From a virus: DNA of 48,083 nt. The notes under the pieces are model-generated. The model was not told where the DNA came from, ran no database searches, and saw nothing but the letters and a program-made list of their open reading frames with translations. A program made the position numbers and the translations under genes. Below, piece after piece: positions 3,643 through 15,399 of this stretch (positions are counted from its first letter, which is position 1; each line of letters begins with the position of its first letter). The stretch is taken from the IMG/VR virus record IMGVR_UViG_3300013119_000052, positions 1-48,083 of that record; one strand, given 5' to 3'.

Positions 3643-3825
3643 ATGCCCACTTACAAGAAGTATTTAGTACAATATAACCTTAATGGTAACGCAGTGATGA
3701 GGGAGACTGAGGCATTAAGCTTCTTAGGAGCTACCATCAACGCATCAACTAATATCAATCATCGTCCCTCACTGAAAGGGGCAACCATTACTAGCATAAA
3801 GGAGATGGGGAATGTTCTCGCCTGA
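3643..3825 (+). CDS. Small protein of unknown function (60 aa)
   Basis: The start is fixed by the AGGAG in the repeated 17-mer. The product is a polar 60-residue protein with a basic Tyr/Lys N-terminus and a Ser/Thr-rich middle. Its final codons overlap the start of the 302-residue protein by 14 bases, so the two are probably co-translated. No family recognised. Confidence 0.65.
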   Translation: MPTYKKYLVQYNLNGNAVMRETEALSFLGATINASTNINHRPSLKGATITSIKEMGNVLA

Positions 3826-4720
3826 GATATTTAAATCAATCAGTCAGATTAATAATGTCATCGAAGGTATTACTACCAGTGACTACTCTGACACTACTAA
3901 CTCAGTATGGGGGGTAGTGAATAAGCATGGGGAGTATACCAAATGTCCCCATACTCACTGCTTCGCTGGAAGTAGTCGTGTAGGTAAGGGGAATAAGTTC
4001 TTCATCAACCGCATTCAATACAATGGTGCGCTACAAACCGTTGAGTTGCGTAAGAAACATCATAAAGATCTAGTTAAATACTATGATATGTTGTTCAATG
4101 ACTCTGTGTGGGCTGACGTATTCATCACTAAGAGTGGAGAGGAAGCTGTATCTACACGCTTTATCGTAGCTCGTACTGATGTCCCTTCGAACATGCTTAT
4201 TCAAGCTATGCAAGCTTGCCGTATCCCAACTGAATATCATAATACCATGTGGGCATGTAATGATTTAGTGGATGGTGGTGTTAATCCTAAGCTGGCCTTC
4301 GTCCTTGGTATCATGATGCGTGGTGGTAACTTCCGTGAGGGTACCGTAGACTTCCTTGATTCAGGTACTAACCATACTTGTATGGACCCAATGTATTTCA
4401 ATAAGAAAGCATTGAAACGCATGTATGATGGTAACTGTCAAGCTAACCAGAACTACTGGAACAATCCTGATTACACCTCTTCCTTCCGAATCTTTGAGAC
4501 TTGGGGTAGTCAGAGTGATAATGAATTATGTAACTACATTAAGGAAAACTTCAGACCCAAGGAAATACTAGGTATTGAGAAGGCTAAGGCAGAATGTCTT
4601 AACCCATTCAAGCGTCCTGAAAGGGTTACTAAACCTAAACACTTATGGGAATATGACTTAGCTATCAAGGCTATGATTATCTTCGCTAAGCAAATCGAAG
4701 AGGAATTTATTTATGCCTAA
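3812..4720 (+). CDS. Conserved-looking unknown protein, first large gene of the ligase island (302 aa)
   Basis: A soluble protein with no signal peptide or membrane span. It has several Cys/His clusters (C-P-H-T-H-C near residues 45-50, T-C-M-D-P near 190) and a Trp-Ala-Cys-Asn segment near 147. Metal binding is possible but not shown. I do not recognise the fold. It overlaps the upstream gene by 14 bases and the downstream amidotransferase-like gene by 8, so it is translationally coupled into the amidoligase island and may be part of that pathway. That role is inference from context only. Confidence 0.8.
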   Translation: MFSPEIFKSISQINNVIEGITTSDYSDTTNSVWGVVNKHGEYTKCPHTHCFAGSSRVGKGNKFFINRIQYNGALQTVELRKKHHKDLVKYYDMLFNDSVWADVFITKSGEEAVSTRFIVARTDVPSNMLIQAMQACRIPTEYHNTMWACNDLVDGGVNPKLAFVLGIMMRGGNFREGTVDFLDSGTNHTCMDPMYFNKKALKRMYDGNCQANQNYWNNPDYTSSFRIFETWGSQSDNELCNYIKENFRPKEILGIEKAKAECLNPFKRPERVTKPKHLWEYDLAIKAMIIFAKQIEEEFIYA

Positions 4721-5342
4721 GGTTTTCATTGCTCAAGCTAATGAAGGTAGTCAATACCATAAGATGTTTGAGGAAGCTGGTTGGGAGGTTGTCCAGTCTG
4801 TTAGTGAAGCTGACTTGATCCAGTTCATTGGTGGTGCTGATGTTAACCCAGCCCTATACCATCACAAGGTACACCCTACTACCAGCTTCAATACACTAGT
4901 TGACACAGTAGATGCGCAGTTCTTTGAACTAGGTAAGCGTCATAACATACCTATGGCTGGTATATGTCGAGGGGGTCAGTTCCTTAATGTATCTAATGGC
5001 GGTACAATGGTTCAGCATTGTGACAACCATGGGGTACATGCTGGTCATTACGCTATTGATAAGAATAGTGGGGCTACCATTCGTGTTAGTAGTACACACC
5101 ACCAGATGATGATTCCTAGTGAAGATGCTGAGGTGATTGCTATTGCTAATGAAGCAACAACTAAACAAGTGTATATCAAAACCGTTAAGGACTTACAGGA
5201 ATATATGGTTGATGATATAGAGGTGGTGTACTATGAGAAGACCAACTGTCTGTGTTTCCAACCGCATCCTGAGTTTAATGGCTTTCCTCAATGTCGTCAG
5301 TATTACTTCACTCTTCTTGAGAAGTACTTGGGGGTGGGCTGA
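4713..5342 (+). CDS. Class I glutamine amidotransferase-like / gamma-glutamyl hydrolase-type enzyme
   Basis: A 209-residue single-domain protein of the class I (triad) glutamine amidotransferase / peptidase C26 type. The nucleophile elbow G-I-C-R-G-G puts Cys at residue 85. The C-terminal P-H-P-E gives His185 and Glu187, completing the triad. Members hydrolyse glutamine or gamma-glutamyl amides. With no fused synthetase domain, it either supplies ammonia to a partner or cleaves gamma-glutamyl-type bonds, which fits the ligases downstream. It overlaps its upstream gene by 8 bases and shares its 3' end with a membrane-protein frame. Confidence 0.9.
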   Translation: MPKVFIAQANEGSQYHKMFEEAGWEVVQSVSEADLIQFIGGADVNPALYHHKVHPTTSFNTLVDTVDAQFFELGKRHNIPMAGICRGGQFLNVSNGGTMVQHCDNHGVHAGHYAIDKNSGATIRVSSTHHQMMIPSEDAEVIAIANEATTKQVYIKTVKDLQEYMVDDIEVVYYEKTNCLCFQPHPEFNGFPQCRQYYFTLLEKYLGVG

Positions 5343-5547
5343 TTACTACCTGTTAGGTGTGATTGTGTCATCCATGCTGATGGCACACACCCTATCTAAG
5401 AAGGGGATAGCCCTAGAAGCTCGTGTAATCGCCTGTGTGATGATTACTAGCTCATGGGTATGTGTTGGTATGGCTTTATATCAAATAGGTCTTATAGGCT
5501 CATACAGACAGATTAAACGTGGGTTTAAGTTTAGGGATGCTGATTAG
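5233..5547 (+). CDS. Two-span membrane protein overlapping the amidotransferase (up to 104 aa)
   Basis: The distal part (5343-5547) is clearly its own gene, with two hydrophobic segments near residues 37-54 and 64-89 and a basic C-terminus. The ATG at 5233 has GAGG (5220-5223) nine bases upstream, which would make it overlap the amidotransferase by 110 bases in another frame. An alternative ATG at 5278 has a weaker site. Function unknown; small membrane proteins of this kind are common in phage early regions. Confidence 0.6.
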   Translation: MRRPTVCVSNRILSLMAFLNVVSITSLFLRSTWGWADYYLLGVIVSSMLMAHTLSKKGIALEARVIACVMITSSWVCVGMALYQIGLIGSYRQIKRGFKFRDAD

Positions 5548-5570
5548 CTAGATTTTTGGGAGAAAATTTT
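5536..5570 (+). repeat. 35-bp patterned repeat, copy 1
   Basis: Pattern GATGCTGATT, six bases, ATTTTTG, two bases, AGAAAATTTT; the same blocks with the same spacing occur at 12487-12521. The ATTTT and AAAAT arms can form a small AT hairpin. This copy ends immediately before the ATG at 5571. Confidence 0.7.
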
Positions 5571-5959
<389 letters not shown>

Positions 5960-5985
5960 ATTTATTAACAACACAGGAGGCTATC

Positions 5986-6222
5986 ATGCCACGTGGTTTA
6001 ACATATGAAGAACGTCGTCTATTGGAACGACTAAAACGTAAACATTCTGATCGTAGTGAAGATGAGCTTATTGCTGCCATTATTGGTGGGGGTGTGGCTG
6101 CTTTAACAGATAGTGCCATTCTGGGCTCTGTCACTGGTATGGCCTTAGGGGCTGATCCAGTTACATCCATTGCATCTAGTATAGTGGGTGACATCTTTGG
6201 TGGCGGTGGCCTTTTCGATTAA
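5986..6222 (+). CDS. Small Gly-rich protein with basic N-terminus (78 aa)
   Basis: A ribosome-binding site AGGAGG lies just upstream. Residues 1-27 are charged and helical (Arg/Lys/Glu). Residues 28-75 are Gly/Ala/Ile-rich with glycine-zipper-like spacing and end in G-G-G-G-L-F-D. Similar small proteins ending in an acidic L-F-(D/E) occur in other phages without a known role. A membrane-associated or oligomeric protein is possible. Confidence 0.7.
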   Translation: MPRGLTYEERRLLERLKRKHSDRSEDELIAAIIGGGVAALTDSAILGSVTGMALGADPVTSIASSIVGDIFGGGGLFD

Positions 6223-6238
6223 TAGCTGAGGAGCTAAT

Positions 6239-6640
6239 ATGTGTAAGTGGTTGGAACACACAGAGCCAATCGGGGAGTGCCTAGTTTGGACTAGGTGTCT
6301 TAATACGGATGGTTACCCAAGGGCTCTTGTAAATGGCAATGCCAATGGTAAGGTTCACAGGGAAGTATTCCATCACTTCAATGGATATTATCCACCTGTA
6401 GTCAGGCATACTTGTGATAATCCGAAATGTATAAATCCTGACCACTTGATTGCAGGTGACCCTACATCTAACATGGCAGATCGTCGTAATAGGGGTAGGA
6501 CACATGGTCATGTAAGTGAGGAAGAGATTGAAAACGTACTTAACCTAAGATCTAAAGAATACTGTTACAAAAAGATAGGGGAAACTTTAGGGATTAAATA
6601 TAAACGGGTAGAGTATATCATTAGTAAATATCAACAGTAG
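6239..6640 (+). CDS. HNH homing-type endonuclease
   Basis: 133 residues. The core has H-R at 40-41, R-H-T-C at 56-59, the N-P-x-C-x-N-P-D-H-L signature at 61-70, and the N-M-A-D-R-R-N-R-G-R stretch at 78-87 typical of phage HNH_3 nucleases. The C-terminal 45 residues look like a helix-turn-helix DNA-binding module. Such genes are mobile; this one sits just before the class II amidotransferase, in the same reading frame, and the amidotransferase lacks an ATG. No intron conserved core was recognised around it. AGGAG precedes the ATG. Confidence 0.92.
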   Translation: MCKWLEHTEPIGECLVWTRCLNTDGYPRALVNGNANGKVHREVFHHFNGYYPPVVRHTCDNPKCINPDHLIAGDPTSNMADRRNRGRTHGHVSEEEIENVLNLRSKEYCYKKIGETLGIKYKRVEYIISKYQQ

Positions 6641-6651
6641 CCGTTGGCTAC
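6637..6651 (+). other. Hairpin before the non-AUG amidotransferase start
   Basis: GTAGCC-GTT-GGCTAC: a perfect 6-bp stem with a 3-base loop, overlapping the HNH stop codon and ending three bases before AAGGA (6654-6658). There is no T-run, so it is not an ordinary terminator. It could block or restart ribosomes at the unusual start codon. Confidence 0.6.
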
Positions 6652-6664
6652 GTAAGGAACTATT

Positions 6665-7768
6665 ATCTGTGGAATTGTGGGCGCAGCAGGTGCCTTAACT
6701 TTTAGAGAAGAGAAGATGGTTAAAACCCTTCTCCAACTGGACACTGTACGTGGCCCTCATTCAACTGGCTTGTTTGGAGCTAAGACGTCAGGTCAAACTG
6801 AAATCTTTAAGAAGATGGGTACTCCTTGGGAAGTAGCTGAATACAAGGGATGGGATAAGTTCTGGGCTGGCTGTTACAATGTAATCATTGGTCATAACCG
6901 TTGGGCTACGCAAGGTGGTATTAATCATGCCAATGCTCATCCATTCAACCATGGTAACATCTTCGGCGTACATAATGGTACACTGAAGCCTTCACGTAAC
7001 CATCTACTGGATGATGCTGAATACTTTGAAGTGGATAGTGAGAACATTTACTATCACATGGCACGTAATGGTGTGGATGATACTATCAAGAATCTTGATG
7101 GTGCATTTGCATTAGTATGGTATGACGAGGATCAAGGTACACTAAACCTCACACGTAATGAGGAACGTCCTTTATACTTCTGTTATGCACAAGATCGTAA
7201 GTCTATCTTCTGGGCCTCAGAGGATTGGATGTTAACTGTAGCTGCTGCTAAGCATGATGTTAAGATTCAAAACATCTTAGAGCTTAAGCCGGGGACATTA
7301 TTCTCAATTCCTGTGGAGCTTAAAGGTTCTTACAACTATAAGCCAATTGGTGAGGGTGTTGTTGTACGTGAGTTAGAACAATATCGTAAGCCTATTATTG
7401 CACGTAAGCAGACGCCTCCTGTAAAGAAGCAAAATAACGTCACACCTATTACTACTAAGCGAGACGAACTTGCAAAGTGGCAGGGCAAGACGATTCAATT
7501 CCGAGTGGATGGCTTGGACGAGGATCAGTCTTGCGGAATGGAATTCTTAGATTGCTCTATGGAAGACTCTCCTATTGAGGTGAGGTATTTCTTCGAGGAG
7601 TTGACTGATAAGATTAATGATATGGTGGATAGTGATCACACTTATTCCGCTGTAGTACGATCTTATAGTGCACGTCAACGTGGTTATATTGTAGTGGATC
7701 CTCGTACAGTTCATATTGTATTGGAGGAATCTGATGAAGAAAAAAAGCGTCAAAAGAGTTTGCATTAG
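6665..7768 (+). CDS. Class II (Ntn-type) glutamine amidotransferase, apparent AUC start
   Basis: The mature protein should begin Cys-Gly-Ile-Val-Gly, the catalytic N-terminal cysteine of class II glutaminases. The codon before that TGT is ATC (6665-6667), with AAGGA six bases upstream and a stop at 6653. No ATG, GTG or TTG can keep the cysteine; the first ordinary start (GTG, 6677) would remove it. Counting ATC as Met1, the core motifs are R-G-P-H-S-T-G (29-35), G-H-N-R-W-A-T-Q-G (76-84), N-A-H-P-F (90-94) and V-H-N-G (102-105). About 160 C-terminal residues are unassigned. It probably feeds ammonia to the ligases downstream. The 3' end holds a slippery A tract. Confidence 0.9.
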   Translation: MCGIVGAAGALTFREEKMVKTLLQLDTVRGPHSTGLFGAKTSGQTEIFKKMGTPWEVAEYKGWDKFWAGCYNVIIGHNRWATQGGINHANAHPFNHGNIFGVHNGTLKPSRNHLLDDAEYFEVDSENIYYHMARNGVDDTIKNLDGAFALVWYDEDQGTLNLTRNEERPLYFCYAQDRKSIFWASEDWMLTVAAAKHDVKIQNILELKPGTLFSIPVELKGSYNYKPIGEGVVVRELEQYRKPIIARKQTPPVKKQNNVTPITTKRDELAKWQGKTIQFRVDGLDEDQSCGMEFLDCSMEDSPIEVRYFFEELTDKINDMVDSDHTYSAVVRSYSARQRGYIVVDPRTVHIVLEESDEEKKRQKSLH

Positions 7769-7950
7769 GATTTGATAATGTCAAGCTCGATCGCTTAGAA
7801 TTTGCATTTGCAACTAAACATGGTTGCGCATGGTGTTCTGACATAGCACAATGGGAAGAGAGGGATGAGATTGTATGGATTAGTCCATCTGAATTCATAT
7901 GCCCTCACTGTGCTGGAACGGAAGATGTATTAAACTACTTAGAAGGGTGA
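7734..7950 (+). CDS. Zinc-ribbon protein reachable only by frameshift
   Basis: The frame from about 7738 to 7950 encodes C-A-W-C and C-P-H-C separated by about 24 residues: a four-cysteine zinc-ribbon-like domain ending in a short helix. It has no ATG, GTG or TTG of its own. There are two routes in. The amidotransferase could shift -1 at A AAA AAG (7741-7747), giving a C-terminal fusion. Alternatively, the ATG at 7734 (GGAGG six bases before it) could be joined by losing one A from the A7 tract, giving a separate 71-residue protein starting M-K-K-K-A-S-K. Programmed recoding, polymerase slippage or a homopolymer sequencing error all fit. Confidence 0.6.
7741..7747 (+). other. Candidate -1 frameshift site A AAA AAG
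   Basis: In the amidotransferase frame the codons are AAA-AAG preceded by A, the same heptamer as the E. coli dnaX frameshift site. A Shine-Dalgarno-like GGAGG lies 13 bases upstream (7723-7727), similar in kind to the dnaX stimulator. The -1 frame stays open for 68 more codons and encodes the zinc ribbon. I did not find a strong downstream stem-loop. Confidence 0.55.
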
Positions 7951-7955
7951 CTTAA

Positions 7956-8744
7956 GTGAAAGAAATAGCATTGAAGATTGGAGCCGACCCAGAAGTATTT
8001 GTACAACAGGGTGGTAAGTTTGTATCTGCACATGGATTGGTGCAGGGTACAAAGGATGAGCCGTTTAAGGTTAAGCGTGGTGCTGTGCAGGTAGATGGCA
8101 TGGCATTAGAATTTAATATTGACCCAGCGGAAAGTGAGAAAGAGTTTAAACGTAACATTAAAACTGTTATGGGTATTCTTGATAAGATGGTCCCTGACCA
8201 TGACTTACATCCAGTACCTACAGCTACATTTGGTAAAGAGTATATGGCTACTCAACCAGAGGAAGCTCTAGAACTTGGATGTGATCCAGACTTTAATGCT
8301 TGGAACGAGGGTAAAGAGAATCCTCGTCCGAATGGTGACGCTGATTTCCGTACAGGTGCAGGTCACATTCATATTGGGTGGACAGATGGTGTGGATATTA
8401 CACACCCAGAGCATCTAGAGGCGTGTATCACAGTTATTAAGCAACTGGATTGGTCTTTAGGTATGCTATCAACTGTGTATGATAGAGATGAGAAACGTCG
8501 TAAGCTTTATGGGGATTGGGGTGCATTCCGTCCTAAGCCTTATGGTGTTGAGTATCGTGTACTATCTAACGCATGGTTAAAAGATCCTAAGCTAGTTGCT
8601 TGGGTTTATCGTACTGTTAATAAGGCTATCCAAGACTTATATAATGGTAAGCATCAATACTTGGAAGATAAAGTACCAGATCCTAAATACCTTCCATATG
8701 TAACGAAGGTTTGGGGCTATGAACTACCACCAGTAGGGAAATAA
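7956..8744 (+). CDS. COOH-NH2 ligase type 2 (phage amidoligase of the glutamine-synthetase-like superfamily)
   Basis: 262 residues with a GTG start (AAGGG about eight bases upstream). It carries G-A-D-P-E-V-F-V (9-16), A-V-Q-V-D-G-x-A-L-E-F-N (43-54), G-A-G-H-I-H-I-G-W (134-142) and Y-G-V-E-Y-R-V-L (197-204), the pattern I know from phiEco32-type COOH-NH2 ligases (glutamate-cysteine-ligase-like fold). These enzymes are predicted to form amide bonds between a carboxylate and an amine using ATP. The substrate here is unknown. It is followed after one base by an unknown protein and then by a second amidoligase. Confidence 0.9.
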   Translation: MKEIALKIGADPEVFVQQGGKFVSAHGLVQGTKDEPFKVKRGAVQVDGMALEFNIDPAESEKEFKRNIKTVMGILDKMVPDHDLHPVPTATFGKEYMATQPEEALELGCDPDFNAWNEGKENPRPNGDADFRTGAGHIHIGWTDGVDITHPEHLEACITVIKQLDWSLGMLSTVYDRDEKRRKLYGDWGAFRPKPYGVEYRVLSNAWLKDPKLVAWVYRTVNKAIQDLYNGKHQYLEDKVPDPKYLPYVTKVWGYELPPVGK

Positions 8745-8745
8745 A

Positions 8746-9327
8746 ATGTACGGTAATGACTATCGTTATGCTAACACCCGTCTAAACGGGACAATTGTAC
8801 GTCGTGGGGATCACCCTGTGATGATTAAGCACATTGAGAATGATGGTACAGTACATTGTGAAACTGTAATCACCCGTCGTGATCGTATGTGTGAATTTAG
8901 TGAGCTTGATTTAAGTTCCCCTGAACTAGGTATGGTTAACACAAAGGGTAAAGTTATTTACCTTGCACGTTGCCCTAAACGTGATGATTGGCGTCAAGGT
9001 TTACGTCGTAACAACCTTAAGATTCTAATGGGTGGTGCTATAGAGATTACAGACAAGTTAATCTATCGTGCTATTCGTGGACGCTATCCAACCTTAGAAG
9101 ATGCTATTGCGGATTCTATGGAAGATGGTATCCCTGTAGCGTTCCATCGTCATTGGGCTGTGAGTTATGACCACCGACGTCGCCGTGTAGATTTACTGTA
9201 CAAATGGTATGGTAAAGCTGGAACAATGGATACAGAGGGTGGTGATTGGAAGCTCGTTGATAATGAATCATTCCAATTCTCCAACTTAATCGAAGCTCTG
9301 GGAGAAGCTATTGATGAAAGCAATTAA
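8746..9327 (+). CDS. Unknown protein between the two amidoligases (193 aa)
   Basis: A soluble, Arg-rich protein that starts one base after the ligase stop and overlaps the second amidoligase by 14 bases. Visible features are L-N-G-T-I-V-R-R-G near the N-terminus, a D-W-R-Q-G-L-R-R-N segment near residue 82-90, and an Arg-cluster strand near 145-150. I recall similar proteins next to phage amidoligases but cannot name a domain. Tight coupling on both sides suggests a subunit or substrate of the ligase system. Confidence 0.8.
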   Translation: MYGNDYRYANTRLNGTIVRRGDHPVMIKHIENDGTVHCETVITRRDRMCEFSELDLSSPELGMVNTKGKVIYLARCPKRDDWRQGLRRNNLKILMGGAIEITDKLIYRAIRGRYPTLEDAIADSMEDGIPVAFHRHWAVSYDHRRRRVDLLYKWYGKAGTMDTEGGDWKLVDNESFQFSNLIEALGEAIDESN

Positions 9328-10234
9328 AGATTTTATCCATGGTGCTGATGTCCAAGGGGACTTAGGTATCGAAGTGGAAATGGAAGGCCTTCAACTACCT
9401 AAGGAAGGTAGTAAGTATTGGAAGGTTGAAATGGATGGCTCCCTAGGTGGTCCCGACAACGCAGAGTATGTATTACGTAAGCCCATTAAGGTGGGTAATT
9501 TATATGATGCGTTGAAGGGACTCAAATCTAGTTTCAAGGAACATGGATCTAAGTTAAAACCTTCAGTACGAGCTGGTGTACATGTGCATATCAATGTACA
9601 AGATATGTCAGTGCTGGATGTTGCCAACTTTGTAACCCTATATCTAGTATTAGAAGACCTATTACTGGAAGTATGTGGGGAAGGTCGTCAGTCTAACCTA
9701 TTCTGTCTTAAGGGTTGTGAAGCTGAGTATATGATTTACCAAGCTGCTCAGTTCTTTAAGACTGAAGACATTGGTTATCTAGATCACAACAACATTCGTT
9801 ATTCTGGTATTAACTTAGCTGCCATTCCTAAGTATGGTAGTGTAGAGTTCCGTTCATTCCGTACACCTAAAGACATCAATGAAATAGGTGACTGGGCTGA
9901 GACTCTGCATGAGCTTAAGGAACTATCCAAGGAATATGAATGCCCTTCTGATATCCTGTCAGGTTATTCTGACTTTAACCCTGTAGAGTTCCTAACTAAA
10001 CATCTACCACGTTACGCTGATAAGCTAATGGACTTAGATGATTGGCAGTCTAAACTTAAGCGTGGTATGCGTAGTGCTCAAGACCTAGCGTTTAGTCAAC
10101 GCTGGGGTAAGAAGGTTAAGGTTGATGATGTAGAGATTCCTGATGCAATTCAACGTATGATTGCTGATCATCCAAACATTGATCCACAAGCAATTATTGA
10201 AATGTACCGTAATAGGAGGATTCAAGTTGGATAA
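9314..10234 (+). CDS. Amidoligase (Amidoligase_2-like)
   Basis: 306 residues from the ATG at 9314 (a TTG lies just before it; GGGAGAAG is the ribosome-binding site). Motifs are G-I-E-V-E-M-E-G (18-25), V-E-M-D-G-S-L (38-44), G-V-H-V-H-I-N-V (88-95) and Y-G-S-V-E-F-R-S-F (174-182). These metal/ATP-binding carboxylate and histidine strands match amidoligases of the glutamine-synthetase-like superfamily. It should make amide or isopeptide bonds at the expense of ATP. It is the second such enzyme here, so successive additions or two different acceptors are possible. Confidence 0.9.
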   Translation: MKAIKDFIHGADVQGDLGIEVEMEGLQLPKEGSKYWKVEMDGSLGGPDNAEYVLRKPIKVGNLYDALKGLKSSFKEHGSKLKPSVRAGVHVHINVQDMSVLDVANFVTLYLVLEDLLLEVCGEGRQSNLFCLKGCEAEYMIYQAAQFFKTEDIGYLDHNNIRYSGINLAAIPKYGSVEFRSFRTPKDINEIGDWAETLHELKELSKEYECPSDILSGYSDFNPVEFLTKHLPRYADKLMDLDDWQSKLKRGMRSAQDLAFSQRWGKKVKVDDVEIPDAIQRMIADHPNIDPQAIIEMYRNRRIQVG

Positions 10235-10466
10235 TGATATTCCAGATGGTGCTGAGTATGAATTTTCTTATCAAAATTCCAAGTTCTACCTGAGACTAGG
10301 TAGTTCTCGGGATAACTGCTTATATGCAGTTAGGGGTGAGGGTATATGGAGGGAATTAGGTACGGAACTTAATAAAGCAGTTGAACGATATAAAGCAACC
10401 CCTTGTAATTTAGAAGCTATAATGGATCAATACTTGGAGAAACATAATGTTAGTCTATCCGTATAA
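10227..10466 (+). CDS. Small PxGATH/IMDEYL-family protein, member 1 (79 aa)
   Basis: The start is assigned to TTG at 10227 because AGGAGGA (10214-10220) ends six bases before it; an upstream ATG at 10161 would sit deep inside the amidoligase. The N-terminus has I-P-D-G-A-E-Y, and the C-terminus N-L-E-A-I-M-D-Q-Y-L-E-K. Together with five similar proteins it defines a local paralogue family of unknown function. The codons for Y-L-E also contain the GGAG used by the ATP-grasp gene, which overlaps by 20 bases. Confidence 0.75.
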   Translation: MDNDIPDGAEYEFSYQNSKFYLRLGSSRDNCLYAVRGEGIWRELGTELNKAVERYKATPCNLEAIMDQYLEKHNVSLSV

Positions 10467-11229
10467 ATTTGGCAGTAAGAGTGGTAAAGCTTTAGCTGAA
10501 GCTCTTGGTGCTAAGCGTATTAAGCATAAGAACTCTAAGTTCAAGGGACGTGGTACTAAAACTGTCATTAATTGGGGAGCTTCAAAACTCCCTGATGAAG
10601 TGTTGAAATGTAATGTCCTTAACAATCCAACTAAGGTTGCATTAGTCTCTAATAAGTTGAACTTCTTCAATCACCTAGAGCAATACAATGAAGCGTTAAT
10701 GGAACGTAACGAACCAGTACAGCTTCTAAGCTACCCAGATTGGACTACAGACAAAGTTGTAGCTCAGGAATGGTTAGATGAGGGTAAGACTGTAGTTGAA
10801 CGTCACAAACTTACTGGTAACTCTGGAGAGGGTATTGTAATTACTGAACCAGAGGGTGAACTTGGTAACGCAAAACTGTACACTAAATACATCCCTAAGA
10901 AAGAAGAATATCGTGTACATGTTTTCAAAGATCAACCAATTGATATTCAACGTAAGGCACGTGTACGTGACGTACCTGATGATGAAGTTAATTGGAAGGT
11001 TCGTAACCTTGATGGTGGTTTCATCTTTGCTCGTAACGATGGTCAACCAATGCCCCCATTAGTGGCTCATTACGCTGTACTAGCTGTTAAAGCCTGTGGT
11101 TTAGACTTTGGTGCAGTGGATGTAGTGTATAATGAGAAGCAACACATGCCTTATGTGTTAGAGATTAATACAGCACCGGGACTAATGGGTACAACCTTGG
11201 AGAAATACATTGATGCATTCAATGAGTGA
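10447..11229 (+). CDS. ATP-grasp ligase
   Basis: 260 residues. A glycine-rich T-G-N-S-G-E-G loop (123-129), E-E-Y-R-V-H-V-F (153-160), D-F-G-A-V-D-V-V-Y (220-228) and the Mg-binding Y-V-L-E-I-N-T-A-P-G (236-245) place it in the ATP-grasp superfamily, closest in style to RimK/phage-type peptide ligases. The first 120 residues form the usual N-terminal pre-ATP-grasp part. It makes acyl-phosphate intermediates and couples them to amines, giving a third ATP-driven ligase in the island. Its stop overlaps the next PxGATH-type gene. Confidence 0.93.
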   Translation: MLVYPYKFGSKSGKALAEALGAKRIKHKNSKFKGRGTKTVINWGASKLPDEVLKCNVLNNPTKVALVSNKLNFFNHLEQYNEALMERNEPVQLLSYPDWTTDKVVAQEWLDEGKTVVERHKLTGNSGEGIVITEPEGELGNAKLYTKYIPKKEEYRVHVFKDQPIDIQRKARVRDVPDDEVNWKVRNLDGGFIFARNDGQPMPPLVAHYAVLAVKACGLDFGAVDVVYNEKQHMPYVLEINTAPGLMGTTLEKYIDAFNE

Positions 11230-11448: not shown

Positions 11449-12180
11449 ATGAAATATGTATATATTATAATGCTAACATTAATGAGCCTGACTGTTAATG
11501 CTAGTCAATGTTACAACCTAGACGATAGTCAGGTGAGAGTTTTAAACAAAGCCTATCAAATGGGTAAGGAACATAACCTAGGTTATACTATGATGGCAAT
11601 AGCCATGGAAGAGAGTACAGCAGGTAAATTCCGAATGTCCTTTGAGAGTAGGGACTATGGAGTTATGCAGAATAACTTAAAGACTGCCGCTAGTAGGACA
11701 GGGACTACAGGCTATTACAAGAAGCTCAAGCTAGCTGAGAAGCTTATACTAGATGATAAGCTAAGTATGGAACTAGCATTAGAAGAATTATTATATTGGA
11801 AGCGTCACACCCCCAACTGGAGGGCTATGGTGAGTGCTTACAATAATGGCTGGGCTTGGGACAAGGGCTCAGTATATTTAAATAAGATTATCAAACACGT
11901 TAAAACCTTTATGAATTGTTGGGAGGAGCCTCAACCTATGTTACAAATTAAACAAACACAACGCATTATTGATTACTACGGTGCGGTTATTGTACTCCCA
12001 GATGGTGTTAACTATGTTGCTATGGATTTAGATGGTCAGATTTATGGGTTTGAGGAAGAACCAATGGAAGGGTTCGATGCTTGGATTACTGAATATCACT
12101 ATCATAACGCAATCCATTTAACCACAGTTGAAAATCCAGATGGTATTCACTGGGCTGATACATTAATGGAGATTGAATGA
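11449..12180 (+). CDS. Secreted lytic transglycosylase-like enzyme with PDG domain
   Basis: 243 residues. A signal peptide (1-18, cleavage after V-N-A) directs it to the periplasm. The catalytic domain has A-M-E-E-S with the presumed catalytic Glu at 54 or 55, Y-G-V-M-Q (70-74) and S-A-Y-N-N-G (129-134), the SLT/goose-lysozyme-like pattern. It should cut the glycan strands of peptidoglycan. About 75 extra C-terminal residues begin I-V-L-P-D-G-V-N-Y and resemble the N-terminal motif of the neighbouring PxGATH proteins, suggesting a fusion. It may act in lysis or local wall remodelling; the M15 enzyme at 26950 is the other lysis candidate. Confidence 0.82.
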   Translation: MKYVYIIMLTLMSLTVNASQCYNLDDSQVRVLNKAYQMGKEHNLGYTMMAIAMEESTAGKFRMSFESRDYGVMQNNLKTAASRTGTTGYYKKLKLAEKLILDDKLSMELALEELLYWKRHTPNWRAMVSAYNNGWAWDKGSVYLNKIIKHVKTFMNCWEEPQPMLQIKQTQRIIDYYGAVIVLPDGVNYVAMDLDGQIYGFEEEPMEGFDAWITEYHYHNAIHLTTVENPDGIHWADTLMEIE

Positions 12181-13257: not shown

Positions 13258-14911
13258 TTGTATACAAAAACTACCTCATTCTTGTGGGTCTAGGAAGGGA
13301 CTCCAAGTGTTTGAGAAGGATGATGGTACACTGGATGGATTTTGTTTCTCATGTAACACTTATGTGAAACATCCATATGGTGAACCTAAATCTATTGATG
13401 ACATCCCTGAGAAGGAACGACTAGGTAAAAGTAAGGAAGAGATTAGGGAAGAGATTGAAGAGATCCAAACCTACCCTGTCATGGACTTACGTGACCGAAT
13501 GCTTAGGGAAGCCTATCTTGATTACTATGGTATTAAGATTGGACTCAGTGAGCAGGATGGTAAGACACCTAGACTAGCTTATTTCCCATATTACGTTGAT
13601 GGGGAATTACAAGCTTATAAGTGTAAGCTATTCGAAGGGAAACGATTCTGGTCTTTAGGTGACCAAGGTGATGTAGACTTATTTGGGTGGCAACAAGCTA
13701 TCAAAACTGGGTCTAGACGTCTTATCATTGTAGAGGGTGAGTTTGATGCTCCTGCACTTAAGCGCATCATTGATCTTTACACAGAGGATAGATTTGAAGA
13801 CTTGAAACCGGCTGTCTGTAGCCTTCCACATGGTGCAGCTAGTGCAGGTAAGGACTTAGCAAGACTCTCCAAGAAAATCAGAAAGCATTTTAAGGAAATT
13901 ACCTTCTGTTTTGATGGAGATGAAGCTGGGGAATTAGCAACACAGGAAGCTATGAAAGTGTTTCCTGAGGCCACTGTAGCCACATTACCTATGAAGGATG
14001 CTAATGAGTGTCTATTGGAAGGTAAGAAGGTTCAGAAGGCCGCATATAAAGCCGTATGGTGGGATCATACCAAGACCAAGAATACAAGACTCGTATGTCT
14101 CGATGACATTTGGGAAGATTGTAAGGAAGCTCCTGAGTTTGGTGTATCATGGCCTTGGAAAACTACCACTGACTTAACTCGTGGCATTCGTAAAGGGGAA
14201 ACCATTTACATTGGTGCAGCTCAGAAGATGGGTAAGAGTGAGGTTGTTAATGCGTTAGCAGGTCATTTAGTTGTAGAACATGATTGGAAAATTCTTTTGG
14301 CTAAGCCAGAGGAAGCTAACAAGAAGACAGGTAAGTTATTAGCTGGTAAGATAGCTAAGGCTAAGTTCCATGACCCATCAGTAGAGTTTGACGAGGAAGC
14401 TTTTGAGGAAGCAGGCAAGAAAATCTTGGGCCGTAAGGTCTACATGCTCGACTTATACCAACACGCAGACTATGAAACATTCAAAGCCGATTGCGTGGAG
14501 GCAGCAGCAAATGGGGTTGATGCAATCTTCCTCGATCCAATCACCAACTTAACCAATGGAATGAGTGCAGCAGATGCTAACACTAAGCTACAAGAAATAG
14601 CTCAGGACTTAGCAGCTATGGCTAAAGATTTAGATGTTGCCATCTTCATCTTCTGTCACTTGCGTAATCCAGAAGGTGGTCCGGGTCATGATCGTGGTGG
14701 TAAAGTGTTAACATCACAATTTGCAGGCTCTAGGGCTATGGGACGTTCATGTAATTATATGTTTGGACTTGAGGGGAATAAAGATCCTGAATTAAGTCCA
14801 GAAGATCGTAATACTAGGAAACTTGTGTTACTTGATGATAGGGAATTTGGTGAGGTTGGTGAAACTAATCTTTACTGGAACCCTGAGACAACAGTTTTTG
14901 CGGAGATGTAA
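13250..14911 (+). CDS. T7-type bifunctional primase-helicase
   Basis: 553 residues, GTG start. A zinc motif at the N-terminus uses Cys4, His10/Cys12, Cys32 and Cys35. The Toprim primase core has V-E-G-E-F-D-A (161-167) and F-C-F-D-G-D-E-A-G (219-227). The C-terminal RecA-like DnaB/gp4 helicase has Walker A G-A-A-Q-K-M-G-K-S-E (322-331) and an I-F-L-D-P Walker B-like strand about 100 residues later. Length is close to T7 gp4 (566). It unwinds the fork and primes lagging-strand synthesis with the polymerase encoded two genes downstream. Confidence 0.96.
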   Translation: MSNCIQKLPHSCGSRKGLQVFEKDDGTLDGFCFSCNTYVKHPYGEPKSIDDIPEKERLGKSKEEIREEIEEIQTYPVMDLRDRMLREAYLDYYGIKIGLSEQDGKTPRLAYFPYYVDGELQAYKCKLFEGKRFWSLGDQGDVDLFGWQQAIKTGSRRLIIVEGEFDAPALKRIIDLYTEDRFEDLKPAVCSLPHGAASAGKDLARLSKKIRKHFKEITFCFDGDEAGELATQEAMKVFPEATVATLPMKDANECLLEGKKVQKAAYKAVWWDHTKTKNTRLVCLDDIWEDCKEAPEFGVSWPWKTTTDLTRGIRKGETIYIGAAQKMGKSEVVNALAGHLVVEHDWKILLAKPEEANKKTGKLLAGKIAKAKFHDPSVEFDEEAFEEAGKKILGRKVYMLDLYQHADYETFKADCVEAAANGVDAIFLDPITNLTNGMSAADANTKLQEIAQDLAAMAKDLDVAIFIFCHLRNPEGGPGHDRGGKVLTSQFAGSRAMGRSCNYMFGLEGNKDPELSPEDRNTRKLVLLDDREFGEVGETNLYWNPETTVFAEM

Positions 14912-15399
14912 TGGAACGTAATGATGTAATAGGTAAGGCTTATAACGAGCATTATGATGTATTGTATAAGACAGCTTACGCTAGGCTTAAAGACCATGAT
15001 AATGCTGAAGATGCTGTGCAAATGGCTTTCCTTAAAGCCTTAGAGTATTATGATACATATAATCCAGACAAGGCCGGTGCTGGTGCTTGGATTAATCGTA
15101 TTCTGCAAAACGTATGTAACAAGATTACACAGGTTGAGCGTAACCGTGGTGTTAGTATGGAGTTTGATGAGGAGCTTGCTGATGGTGTCTATATGACGCA
15201 TGAGGGTGATCAACTCTTAGATAAAGCTATTGGTCATATAGCTGAAGAATCTAATGCTAATACTCGTGCTATATTAACCTTATATTTTGTAGATAGGGCT
15301 AAGCCACGTGAGATTGAAGCTATTGTAGGCCTATCTAATTCACGTATTGATAATGTTATTTGGATGTTTAAAAAGAAAATGAGAGGACTATACGCATAA
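14911..15399 (+). CDS. ECF-like RNA polymerase sigma factor
   Basis: 162 residues. Region 2 spans about 11-75 (Y-D-V-L-Y-K-T-A-Y-A-R-L then D-A-E-D-like N-A-E-D-A-V-Q-M-A-F and the W-I-N-R-I helix). Region 4 spans about 104-160, with a helix-turn-helix around P-R-E-I-E-A-I-V-G-L-S-N-S-R. Regions 1 and 3 are absent, as in ECF sigma factors. With no phage RNA polymerase present, it should redirect host RNA polymerase to later phage promoters, as gp36 does in phiEco32. It overlaps the primase stop by one base, and its own stop overlaps the polymerase start. Confidence 0.9.
   Translation: MERNDVIGKAYNEHYDVLYKTAYARLKDHDNAEDAVQMAFLKALEYYDTYNPDKAGAGAWINRILQNVCNKITQVERNRGVSMEFDEELADGVYMTHEGDQLLDKAIGHIAEESNANTRAILTLYFVDRAKPREIEAIVGLSNSRIDNVIWMFKKKMRGLYA

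What the first reader, a model, noticed from the sequence alone, without database searches (positions are those of the whole stretch)
3812..11229. A five-enzyme amide-bond-forming island in a podovirus
Seen: a class I amidotransferase-like hydrolase, a class II amidotransferase, a COOH-NH2 ligase, a second amidoligase and an ATP-grasp ligase in one transcription direction, mostly with overlapping or touching ends, plus two conserved-looking unknowns (3812, 8746). Known: amidoligases with ATP-grasp and amidotransferase partners were predicted from comparative genomics to make peptide tags or modify cell-wall peptides, and phiEco32-like phages carry related sets. Inference: this phage makes or attaches a peptide-like product, possibly acting on host peptidoglycan peptides given the secreted transglycosylase immediately downstream. 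Substrate and product are unknown.
Basis: partly seen in the sequence, partly recalled or inferred. Interest (0 to 1): 0.78.

Follow-up and report, generated by a model that had tools for sequence, protein, structure and literature searches.

The report
Known phage amidoligase cassette, odd translation
This phage carries an already described set of amide-bond-making enzymes shared by hundreds of phages, but its ammonia-supplying enzyme has no normal start codon and appears to gain its tail by a ribosomal frameshift, two features that recur in its relatives and that I did not find discussed in the papers I could search.

Summary
In detail: five enzymes (C26-type class I glutaminase, class II glutamine amidotransferase "GATII", COOH-NH2 ligase, Amidoligase_2, ATP-grasp) lie in one direction with catalytic residues intact. 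The island is a known kind, called a "peptidoglycan modification cassette" in phiEco32, PA11, LUZ24, PaP3 and CW02. It is phage-borne: over 300 isolate records and over 580 viral contigs, against 15 MAG contigs. The downstream transglycosylase is not a conserved neighbour, so it does not support a cell-wall role. The product remains untested.

New here is translation of GATII. Its catalytic Cys follows an AUC codon with a Shine-Dalgarno and no AUG/GUG/UUG available. Of 198 GATII genes 37 start AUU/AUC (phiEco32 too), 12 GUG/UUG, none AUA; at least 11 switches are forced on the tree. AUU/AUC are infC's IF3-repressed start codons. In this phage and three others the C-terminal zinc ribbon lies in the -1 frame after an in-frame A_AAA_AAG, suggesting programmed frameshifting. 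A hairpin upstream of the Shine-Dalgarno looked associated but failed a hold-out test.

The parts
3812..4720 (+). U302: cassette-associated protein of unknown function; conserved C50, R137, E141, H188
   Evidence: phrog_27195; in 71 of 99 loci; conserved residues; AF2 pLDDT 87, no PDB fold match, 19 significant BFVD matches, the named ones all from phages, several of which carry cassette genes
4713..5342 (+). GATI: Peptidase_C26 (gamma-glutamyl hydrolase type) class I glutaminase
   Evidence: PF07722 2.6e-15; C85/H185/E187 and H129-H130-Q131 conserved in 100% of 100 homologues
5883..5959 (+). tRNA-Arg(CCT) inserted between GATI and GATII; not part of the cassette
   Evidence: Rfam and ARAGORN
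6239..6640 (+). HNH endonuclease gene inserted upstream of GATII; not part of the cassette
   Evidence: PF13392 7.3e-7, phrog_1872 1.1e-21
6637..6651 (+). 6-bp hairpin gtagcc-GTT-ggctac directly upstream of the Shine-Dalgarno of GATII (weak evidence)
   Evidence: association not reproduced in hold-out
6654..6658 (+). Shine-Dalgarno AAGGA of GATII
   Evidence: SD comparison
6665..7768 (+). GATII: class II glutamine amidotransferase, inferred start codon ATC (6665-6667), catalytic Cys2
   Evidence: GATase_6; C2, R79, N104, G105, D124 conserved; no ATG/GTG/TTG between upstream stop and Cys
7741..7747 (+). in-frame A_AAA_AAG heptamer, candidate -1 frameshift site
   Evidence: also in L071, L245 and L069
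7747..7950 (+). -1-frame zinc ribbon (CAWC...CPHC) of GATII; predicted fusion 428 aa
   Evidence: CxxC..CxxC is in frame in 139 of 198 relatives; no canonical start before it in the -1 frame
7956..8744 (+). CNL: COOH-NH2 ligase (PF14395), GTG start
   Evidence: residues conserved
8746..9327 (+). U193: sixth core component, unknown function
   Evidence: 89 of 99 loci; hhalign to PaP3 orf47 (93.7%) and to the KBNP1711 (phiEco32-like) equivalent (92.7%); AF2 pLDDT 91, no significant PDB match
9311..10234 (+). AMO2: Amidoligase_2 (PF12224), TTG start
   Evidence: E21/E23/E25, E52, H91/H93, R126, E179, R181 conserved
10447..11229 (+). ATPG: ATP-grasp ligase with ExR and ExN motifs
   Evidence: phrog_2599; E154xR156, K170, D225, E239xN241 conserved
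11449..12180 (+). SLT transglycosylase: neighbour only, not part of the cassette
   Evidence: PF01464; no copy in 58 relative loci

Best explanation
The island is a divergent member (nearest named relatives are PA11 and GP100, annotated Zobellviridae) of the known phage amidoligase cassette. Shown by sequence: five enzymes with intact catalytic residues plus the near-universal partner U193, placed upstream of the replication genes. Inferred mechanism: in the cytoplasm, early in infection, GATII releases ammonia from glutamine for one of the two glutamine-synthetase-fold ligases; CNL forms a gamma-glutamyl-type amide; AMO2 and the ATP-grasp ligase add further amide bonds; the C26 hydrolase (and a gamma-glutamyl cyclotransferase in some relatives) trims or recycles gamma-glutamyl intermediates. 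The likeliest target is a soluble peptide or peptide-bearing precursor such as a cell-wall precursor. Translation of GATII is inferred to be held down by an IF3-discriminated AUC start, and a -1 frameshift at A_AAA_AAG is inferred to give a longer form with a zinc ribbon.
For: Family matches. Catalytic residues conserved over 100-128 homologues. Co-occurrence 98/98/98/89/83 of 99. Same gene set in PA11, CVT22, CW02, phiEco32, KBNP1711, PaP3, phiM6. GGCT neighbours in 31 loci. No transmembrane-like hydrophobic segment in the cassette proteins by a simple hydropathy scan. MS detection of the ATP-grasp, GATase and GGCT proteins in phage SU10. Start codon. Frameshift.
Against: No product or substrate is known. 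The GGCT gene is absent from this genome by PF06094. U193 and U302 have no known fold, so the scheme is incomplete. Neither the AUC start nor the frameshift has been shown by peptide or ribosome-profiling data. Other genes hide start-codon changes better than GATII, because its N-terminal Cys fixes the start; the matched control (CNL 1 of 180 against GATII 28 of 180) covers this only partly. The fold downstream of the slip site is only moderately stable in the window (z -2.4).
Confidence: 0.62

Rival explanations
1. Cell-wall modification against superinfection (Iyer 2009; 'peptidoglycan modification cassette'): the enzymes alter peptidoglycan stem peptides or their precursors so that other phages cannot infect.
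For: Published hypothesis; an amidotransferase with a Mur-ligase-like partner does act on wall peptides elsewhere (MurT-GatD, abstracts).
Against: No secreted or membrane protein in the cassette by hydropathy; lysis genes are not conserved neighbours; no experiment found.
Confidence: 0.35
2. Synthesis of a free gamma-glutamyl peptide-like metabolite, unrelated to the wall, which the phage needs early (for instance to counter a host defence or to buffer redox).
For: CNL/ATP-grasp pairing resembles the order of glutathione synthesis (general knowledge); gamma-glutamyl hydrolase and GGCT types accompany it; early position beside replication genes.
Against: No metabolite known; the conserved U193 is unexplained by a simple metabolite pathway.
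Confidence: 0.3
3. Protein tagging: the ligases attach amino acids to a host or phage protein (RimK-like), with U193 as substrate or adaptor.
For: ATPG has the ExR motif that PMC4431377 links to peptide-bond-forming ATP-grasp ligases; U193 is nearly always present and has no recognised enzyme fold.
Against: Two further ligases and two glutaminases are more than tagging needs; only a weak match to alpha-L-glutamate ligases.
Confidence: 0.2
4. The AUC/AUU starts and the frame break are sequencing or assembly errors.
For: The window is a record from a virus contig collection; the break lies in a run of A.
Against: AUU is at the GATII start of isolates phiEco32, SU10, KBNP1711 and Asterion, and phiEco32's record annotates it; new loci give 9 of 80; four contigs share A_AAA_AAG at the break although about 0.02 is expected in 30 codons.
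Confidence: 0.04

Closest known systems
'Peptidoglycan modification cassette' of podoviruses (PSA-HP1, RIO-1, phiEco32, 7-11, PA11, tf, LUZ24, PaP3, CW02; PMC5498523)
   Same: Same enzyme families in the early region beside replication genes
   Different: Window lacks the GGCT gene; carries a tRNA and HNH insert inside the cassette; GATII starts with AUC and its zinc ribbon lies in the -1 frame
phiEco32 gp83-gp86, gp80, gp77 (NC_010324)
   Same: CNL, U193-like, AMO2, GATII, ATP-grasp; GATII also begins with a non-AUG codon (ATT)
   Different: Gene order differs (GATII after AMO2); GATII is 676 aa; the two genes upstream of CNL in its relative KBNP1711 do not align with the U302 profile
infC (IF3), AUU in E. 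coli and AUC in Streptomyces; sigR GTC (PMC5472188)
   Same: Same two rare start codons as infC with a Shine-Dalgarno, where IF3 represses initiation
   Different: No IF3 feedback loop here; a phage enzyme gene; IF3 dependence untested
E. coli dnaX -1 frameshift (from general knowledge)
   Same: In-frame A_AAA_AAG; in the window an upstream GGAGG and a downstream fold (z -2.4)
   Different: Here the shift would add a C-terminal zinc ribbon instead of giving a shorter form

Membership tests
Phage amidoligase ('peptidoglycan modification') cassette | COOH-NH2 ligase, second amidoligase, ATP-grasp and glutamine amidotransferase in one block | tested here: met
Phage amidoligase ('peptidoglycan modification') cassette | Gamma-glutamyl cyclotransferase present (listed for PSA-HP1; appears optional) | tested here: not met
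   no PF06094 match; also not listed in the annotated CVT22 and PA11 stretches, so it is not treated as defining
Phage amidoligase ('peptidoglycan modification') cassette | Acts on peptidoglycan | not testable with these tools
   no product data found
Class II glutamine amidotransferase | Cys at position 2 behind the start codon plus active-site Arg, Asn-Gly, Asp | tested here: met
   C2, R79, N104, G105, D124
Peptidase C26 | Cys-His-Glu triad | tested here: met
   C85, H185, E187 in 100%
ATP-grasp peptide ligase | ExR and ExN motifs | tested here: met
   E154xR156 and E239xN241
IF3-regulated non-canonical start (infC type) | AUU/AUC start with Shine-Dalgarno and no canonical alternative | tested here: met
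IF3-regulated non-canonical start (infC type) | Expression rises when IF3 is limiting | not testable with these tools
   needs reporter assays
Programmed -1 frameshift | In-frame X_XXY_YYZ heptamer, conserved downstream product | tested here: met
Programmed -1 frameshift | Both products made | not testable with these tools
   needs MS or a reporter

The most novel reading that the evidence does not exclude
Phage class II amidotransferases of this cassette are translationally throttled at both ends: by an IF3-discriminated AUU/AUC start that has switched with AUG many times, and in some phages by -1 frameshifting that sets the ratio of forms with and without a zinc ribbon. It would be a phage use of the infC-type start outside initiation-factor genes.
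Probability: 0.45. Interest if true: 0.72.

Novelty: new variant of a known kind. Interest (0 to 1): 0.55.

Why it matters
The cassette sits in hundreds of phages, including phages of laboratory E. coli and Pseudomonas, and I found no experiment on its product. The new points make it easier to study: the true GATII start (many phiEco32-like records carry no gene over the first 225 bases, so the deposited protein lacks its catalytic Cys), the core partner U193 that any reconstitution should include, and a natural set for testing how IF3-discriminated start codons are gained and lost in evolution.

Tried and rejected
Transglycosylase as part of the system: rejected. Hairpin upstream of the Shine-Dalgarno as a feature of AUU/AUC genes: 17 of 29 against 6 of 79 in the set where it was noticed, but 1 of 9 against 7 of 69 in new loci, and 2 of 9 against 8 of 69 with looser rules; kept only as a possible clade-limited feature. 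GATII split by an intron: not needed, since L010, L022 and L007 have the same kind of start with little or no room for an insert upstream. Folds of U193 and U302: no significant PDB match, no consistent Pfam family. U302 against the genes upstream of CNL in PaP3 and KBNP1711: no profile match. Searches that gave nothing: GATII as a single query, GATII alignment. Rfam: only the tRNA. A 'SspH' Pfam hit in 5 U193 members is taken as chance.
Full report
What is there. The window is a 48,083-base IMG/VR virus record. Between 3812 and 11229 all genes of interest run on the + strand. Pfam and PHROGs identify a Peptidase_C26 protein, a class II glutamine amidotransferase (GATII), a COOH-NH2 ligase (CNL), an Amidoligase_2 (AMO2) and an ATP-grasp ligase (ATPG). 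Between the first two lie a tRNA-Arg and an HNH nuclease gene, which are inserts.

Are the enzymes intact? Aligned with 100-128 homologues per family, the window keeps the C26 triad C85/H185/E187, the GATII residues C2, R79, N104, G105, D124, the CNL invariants (E13, E52, H137, H139, R181, R192, K194, E199, R201), the AMO2 residues E21/E23/E25, H91/H93, R126, E179, R181, and the ATP-grasp ExR and ExN motifs. Reading these as the catalytic residues rests on established knowledge of the families.

Is it a unit? Relatives of CNL occur in 317 phage records, of ATPG in 310 and of GATII in 321, and 588 or more viral contig stretches encode CNL. In a scan of one genome for each of 84,980 bacterial and archaeal species only 15 contigs, all from metagenome-assembled genomes, did so. 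In 99 distinct loci with at least 3.5 kb upstream and 4.5 kb downstream of CNL, GATII, AMO2 and ATPG are each present in 98, U193 in 89, the C26 protein in 83 and U302 in 71. U193 is therefore a core part; hhalign extends it to PaP3 orf47 and the KBNP1711 equivalent. AlphaFold2 gives confident models for U193 (pLDDT 91) and U302 (87) but no significant PDB match. U302 matches 19 viral models at E <= 0.001; those with a name come from phages such as CVT22, CW02, RIO-1, LAh_6 and 4_4572, which carry cassette genes, and from GAP52, LAh_8 and 3H10_20, whose cassette I did not inspect.

Known or new? Known. PMC5498523 describes this set in phages as a 'Peptidoglycan Modification Cassette' and lists phiEco32, 7-11, PA11, tf, MR299-2, LUZ24, PaP3, CW02 and RIO-1; PMC10580990 cites Iyer et al. 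2009 for a role in cell-wall change and superinfection; PMC3890496 lists the gene order in UFV-P2. The Iyer paper itself is not held. The gamma-glutamyl cyclotransferase of several relatives (31 loci) is absent here.

Start codon. In the window the codons before the GATII Cys read TAA GGA ACT ATT ATC TGT, with AAGGA in front. Class II enzymes need this Cys at the N-terminus (established knowledge), so ATC is the only workable start. Among 120 distinct GATII genes of the first sets there were ATG 79, ATT 24, ATC 5, TTG 8, GTG 3 and CTT 1. Newly fetched loci added 69 ATG, 7 ATT, 2 ATC, 1 TTG and one unclear, for totals of ATG 147, ATT 30, ATC 7, TTG 9, GTG 3, ATA 0 and CTG 0 in 198 after removal of near-duplicates. 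Thirty of 197 have no ATG, GTG or TTG at all between the upstream stop and the Cys. A matched control with at most 20 codons of room gives 28 of 180 for GATII, 1 of 180 for CNL, 0 of 173 for U193, AMO2 and ATPG together, and 4 of 29 for the C26 gene; the last shows that the control is not perfectly clean. On a GATII tree built without the start residue, ATT/ATC needs 23 changes, at least 11 of them forced by well-supported branches, and near-identical pairs differ (L100/L105, L117/L127). The Shine-Dalgarno is stronger in front of ATT/ATC (mean -7.7 against -6.3 kcal/mol, p 0.002, not corrected for kinship). Isolates share it: phiEco32 gp83 is annotated from ATT, SU10 has ATT, KBNP1711 and Asterion are annotated from a later GTG. 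Of 55 annotated phiEco32-like records listed, 37 show no gene over this stretch, by my count of the table. PMC5472188 gives ATT for infC in E. coli and ATC in Streptomyces, both repressed by IF3. That GATII is IF3-controlled is inference.

Frameshift. GATII ends in a CxxC..CxxC zinc ribbon in frame in 139 of 198 genes. In the window the ribbon is in the -1 frame behind an in-frame A_AAA_AAG at 7741-7747, six codons before the 0-frame stop, with no canonical start codon before the ribbon in that frame. L071 (the window's nearest relative), L245 and L069 show the same heptamer and a -1 ribbon; L013 has C_CCT_TTC; L163 has the heptamer but the ribbon is in the other frame; L128 and L305 have no heptamer. 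The heptamer is expected 0.02 times in 30 codons. I read this as probable programmed -1 frameshifting, arisen more than once.

Hairpin. A perfect hairpin abuts the Shine-Dalgarno in 17 of 29 ATT/ATC genes against 6 of 79 ATG genes. This was noticed by eye and then counted on the same genes. In new loci it is 1 of 9 against 7 of 69. I do not claim it.

Expression. PMC4281155 reports mass-spectrometric peptides of the ATP-grasp, GATase and GGCT proteins of SU10. The mass given for the GATase (63.8 kDa) is less than 676 aa would weigh; I could not resolve this, so it is evidence that the protein is made, not of where it starts.

Mechanism. Best reading: glutamine-fed synthesis of a gamma-glutamyl-type amide or short peptide in the cytoplasm early in infection, with hydrolytic editing. 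Wall precursors, a free metabolite and a tagged protein remain open, in that order. Only the composition, conservation and intact active sites are shown; order of steps, substrates and product are inferred.

Noticed in passing
window 6665-6667; phiEco32 (L070) and 35 further GATII genes: AUU/AUC start codons in about a fifth of GATII genes, switching with AUG many times.
   Followed up: yes
window 7741-7950; L071, L245, L069: GATII zinc ribbon in the -1 frame behind an in-frame A_AAA_AAG.
   Followed up: partly
phiEco32-like records: Many deposited annotations leave the first ~225 bases of GATII without a gene, so the protein lacks its catalytic Cys.
   Followed up: partly
window 6637-6651: Hairpin directly upstream of the Shine-Dalgarno; common in one set of AUU/AUC genes, not in hold-out loci.
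   Followed up: yes
window 5883-6640: tRNA-Arg(CCT) and HNH nuclease gene inserted between the two glutaminase genes.
   Followed up: no
L005, L006, L008, L009, L011, L029, L031: A second ATP-grasp gene between the C26 and GATII genes in several relatives.
   Followed up: no
window 14911-15399: Small sigma-factor-like protein downstream of the primase/helicase; the family recurs in 45 neighbour genes of relatives.
   Followed up: no
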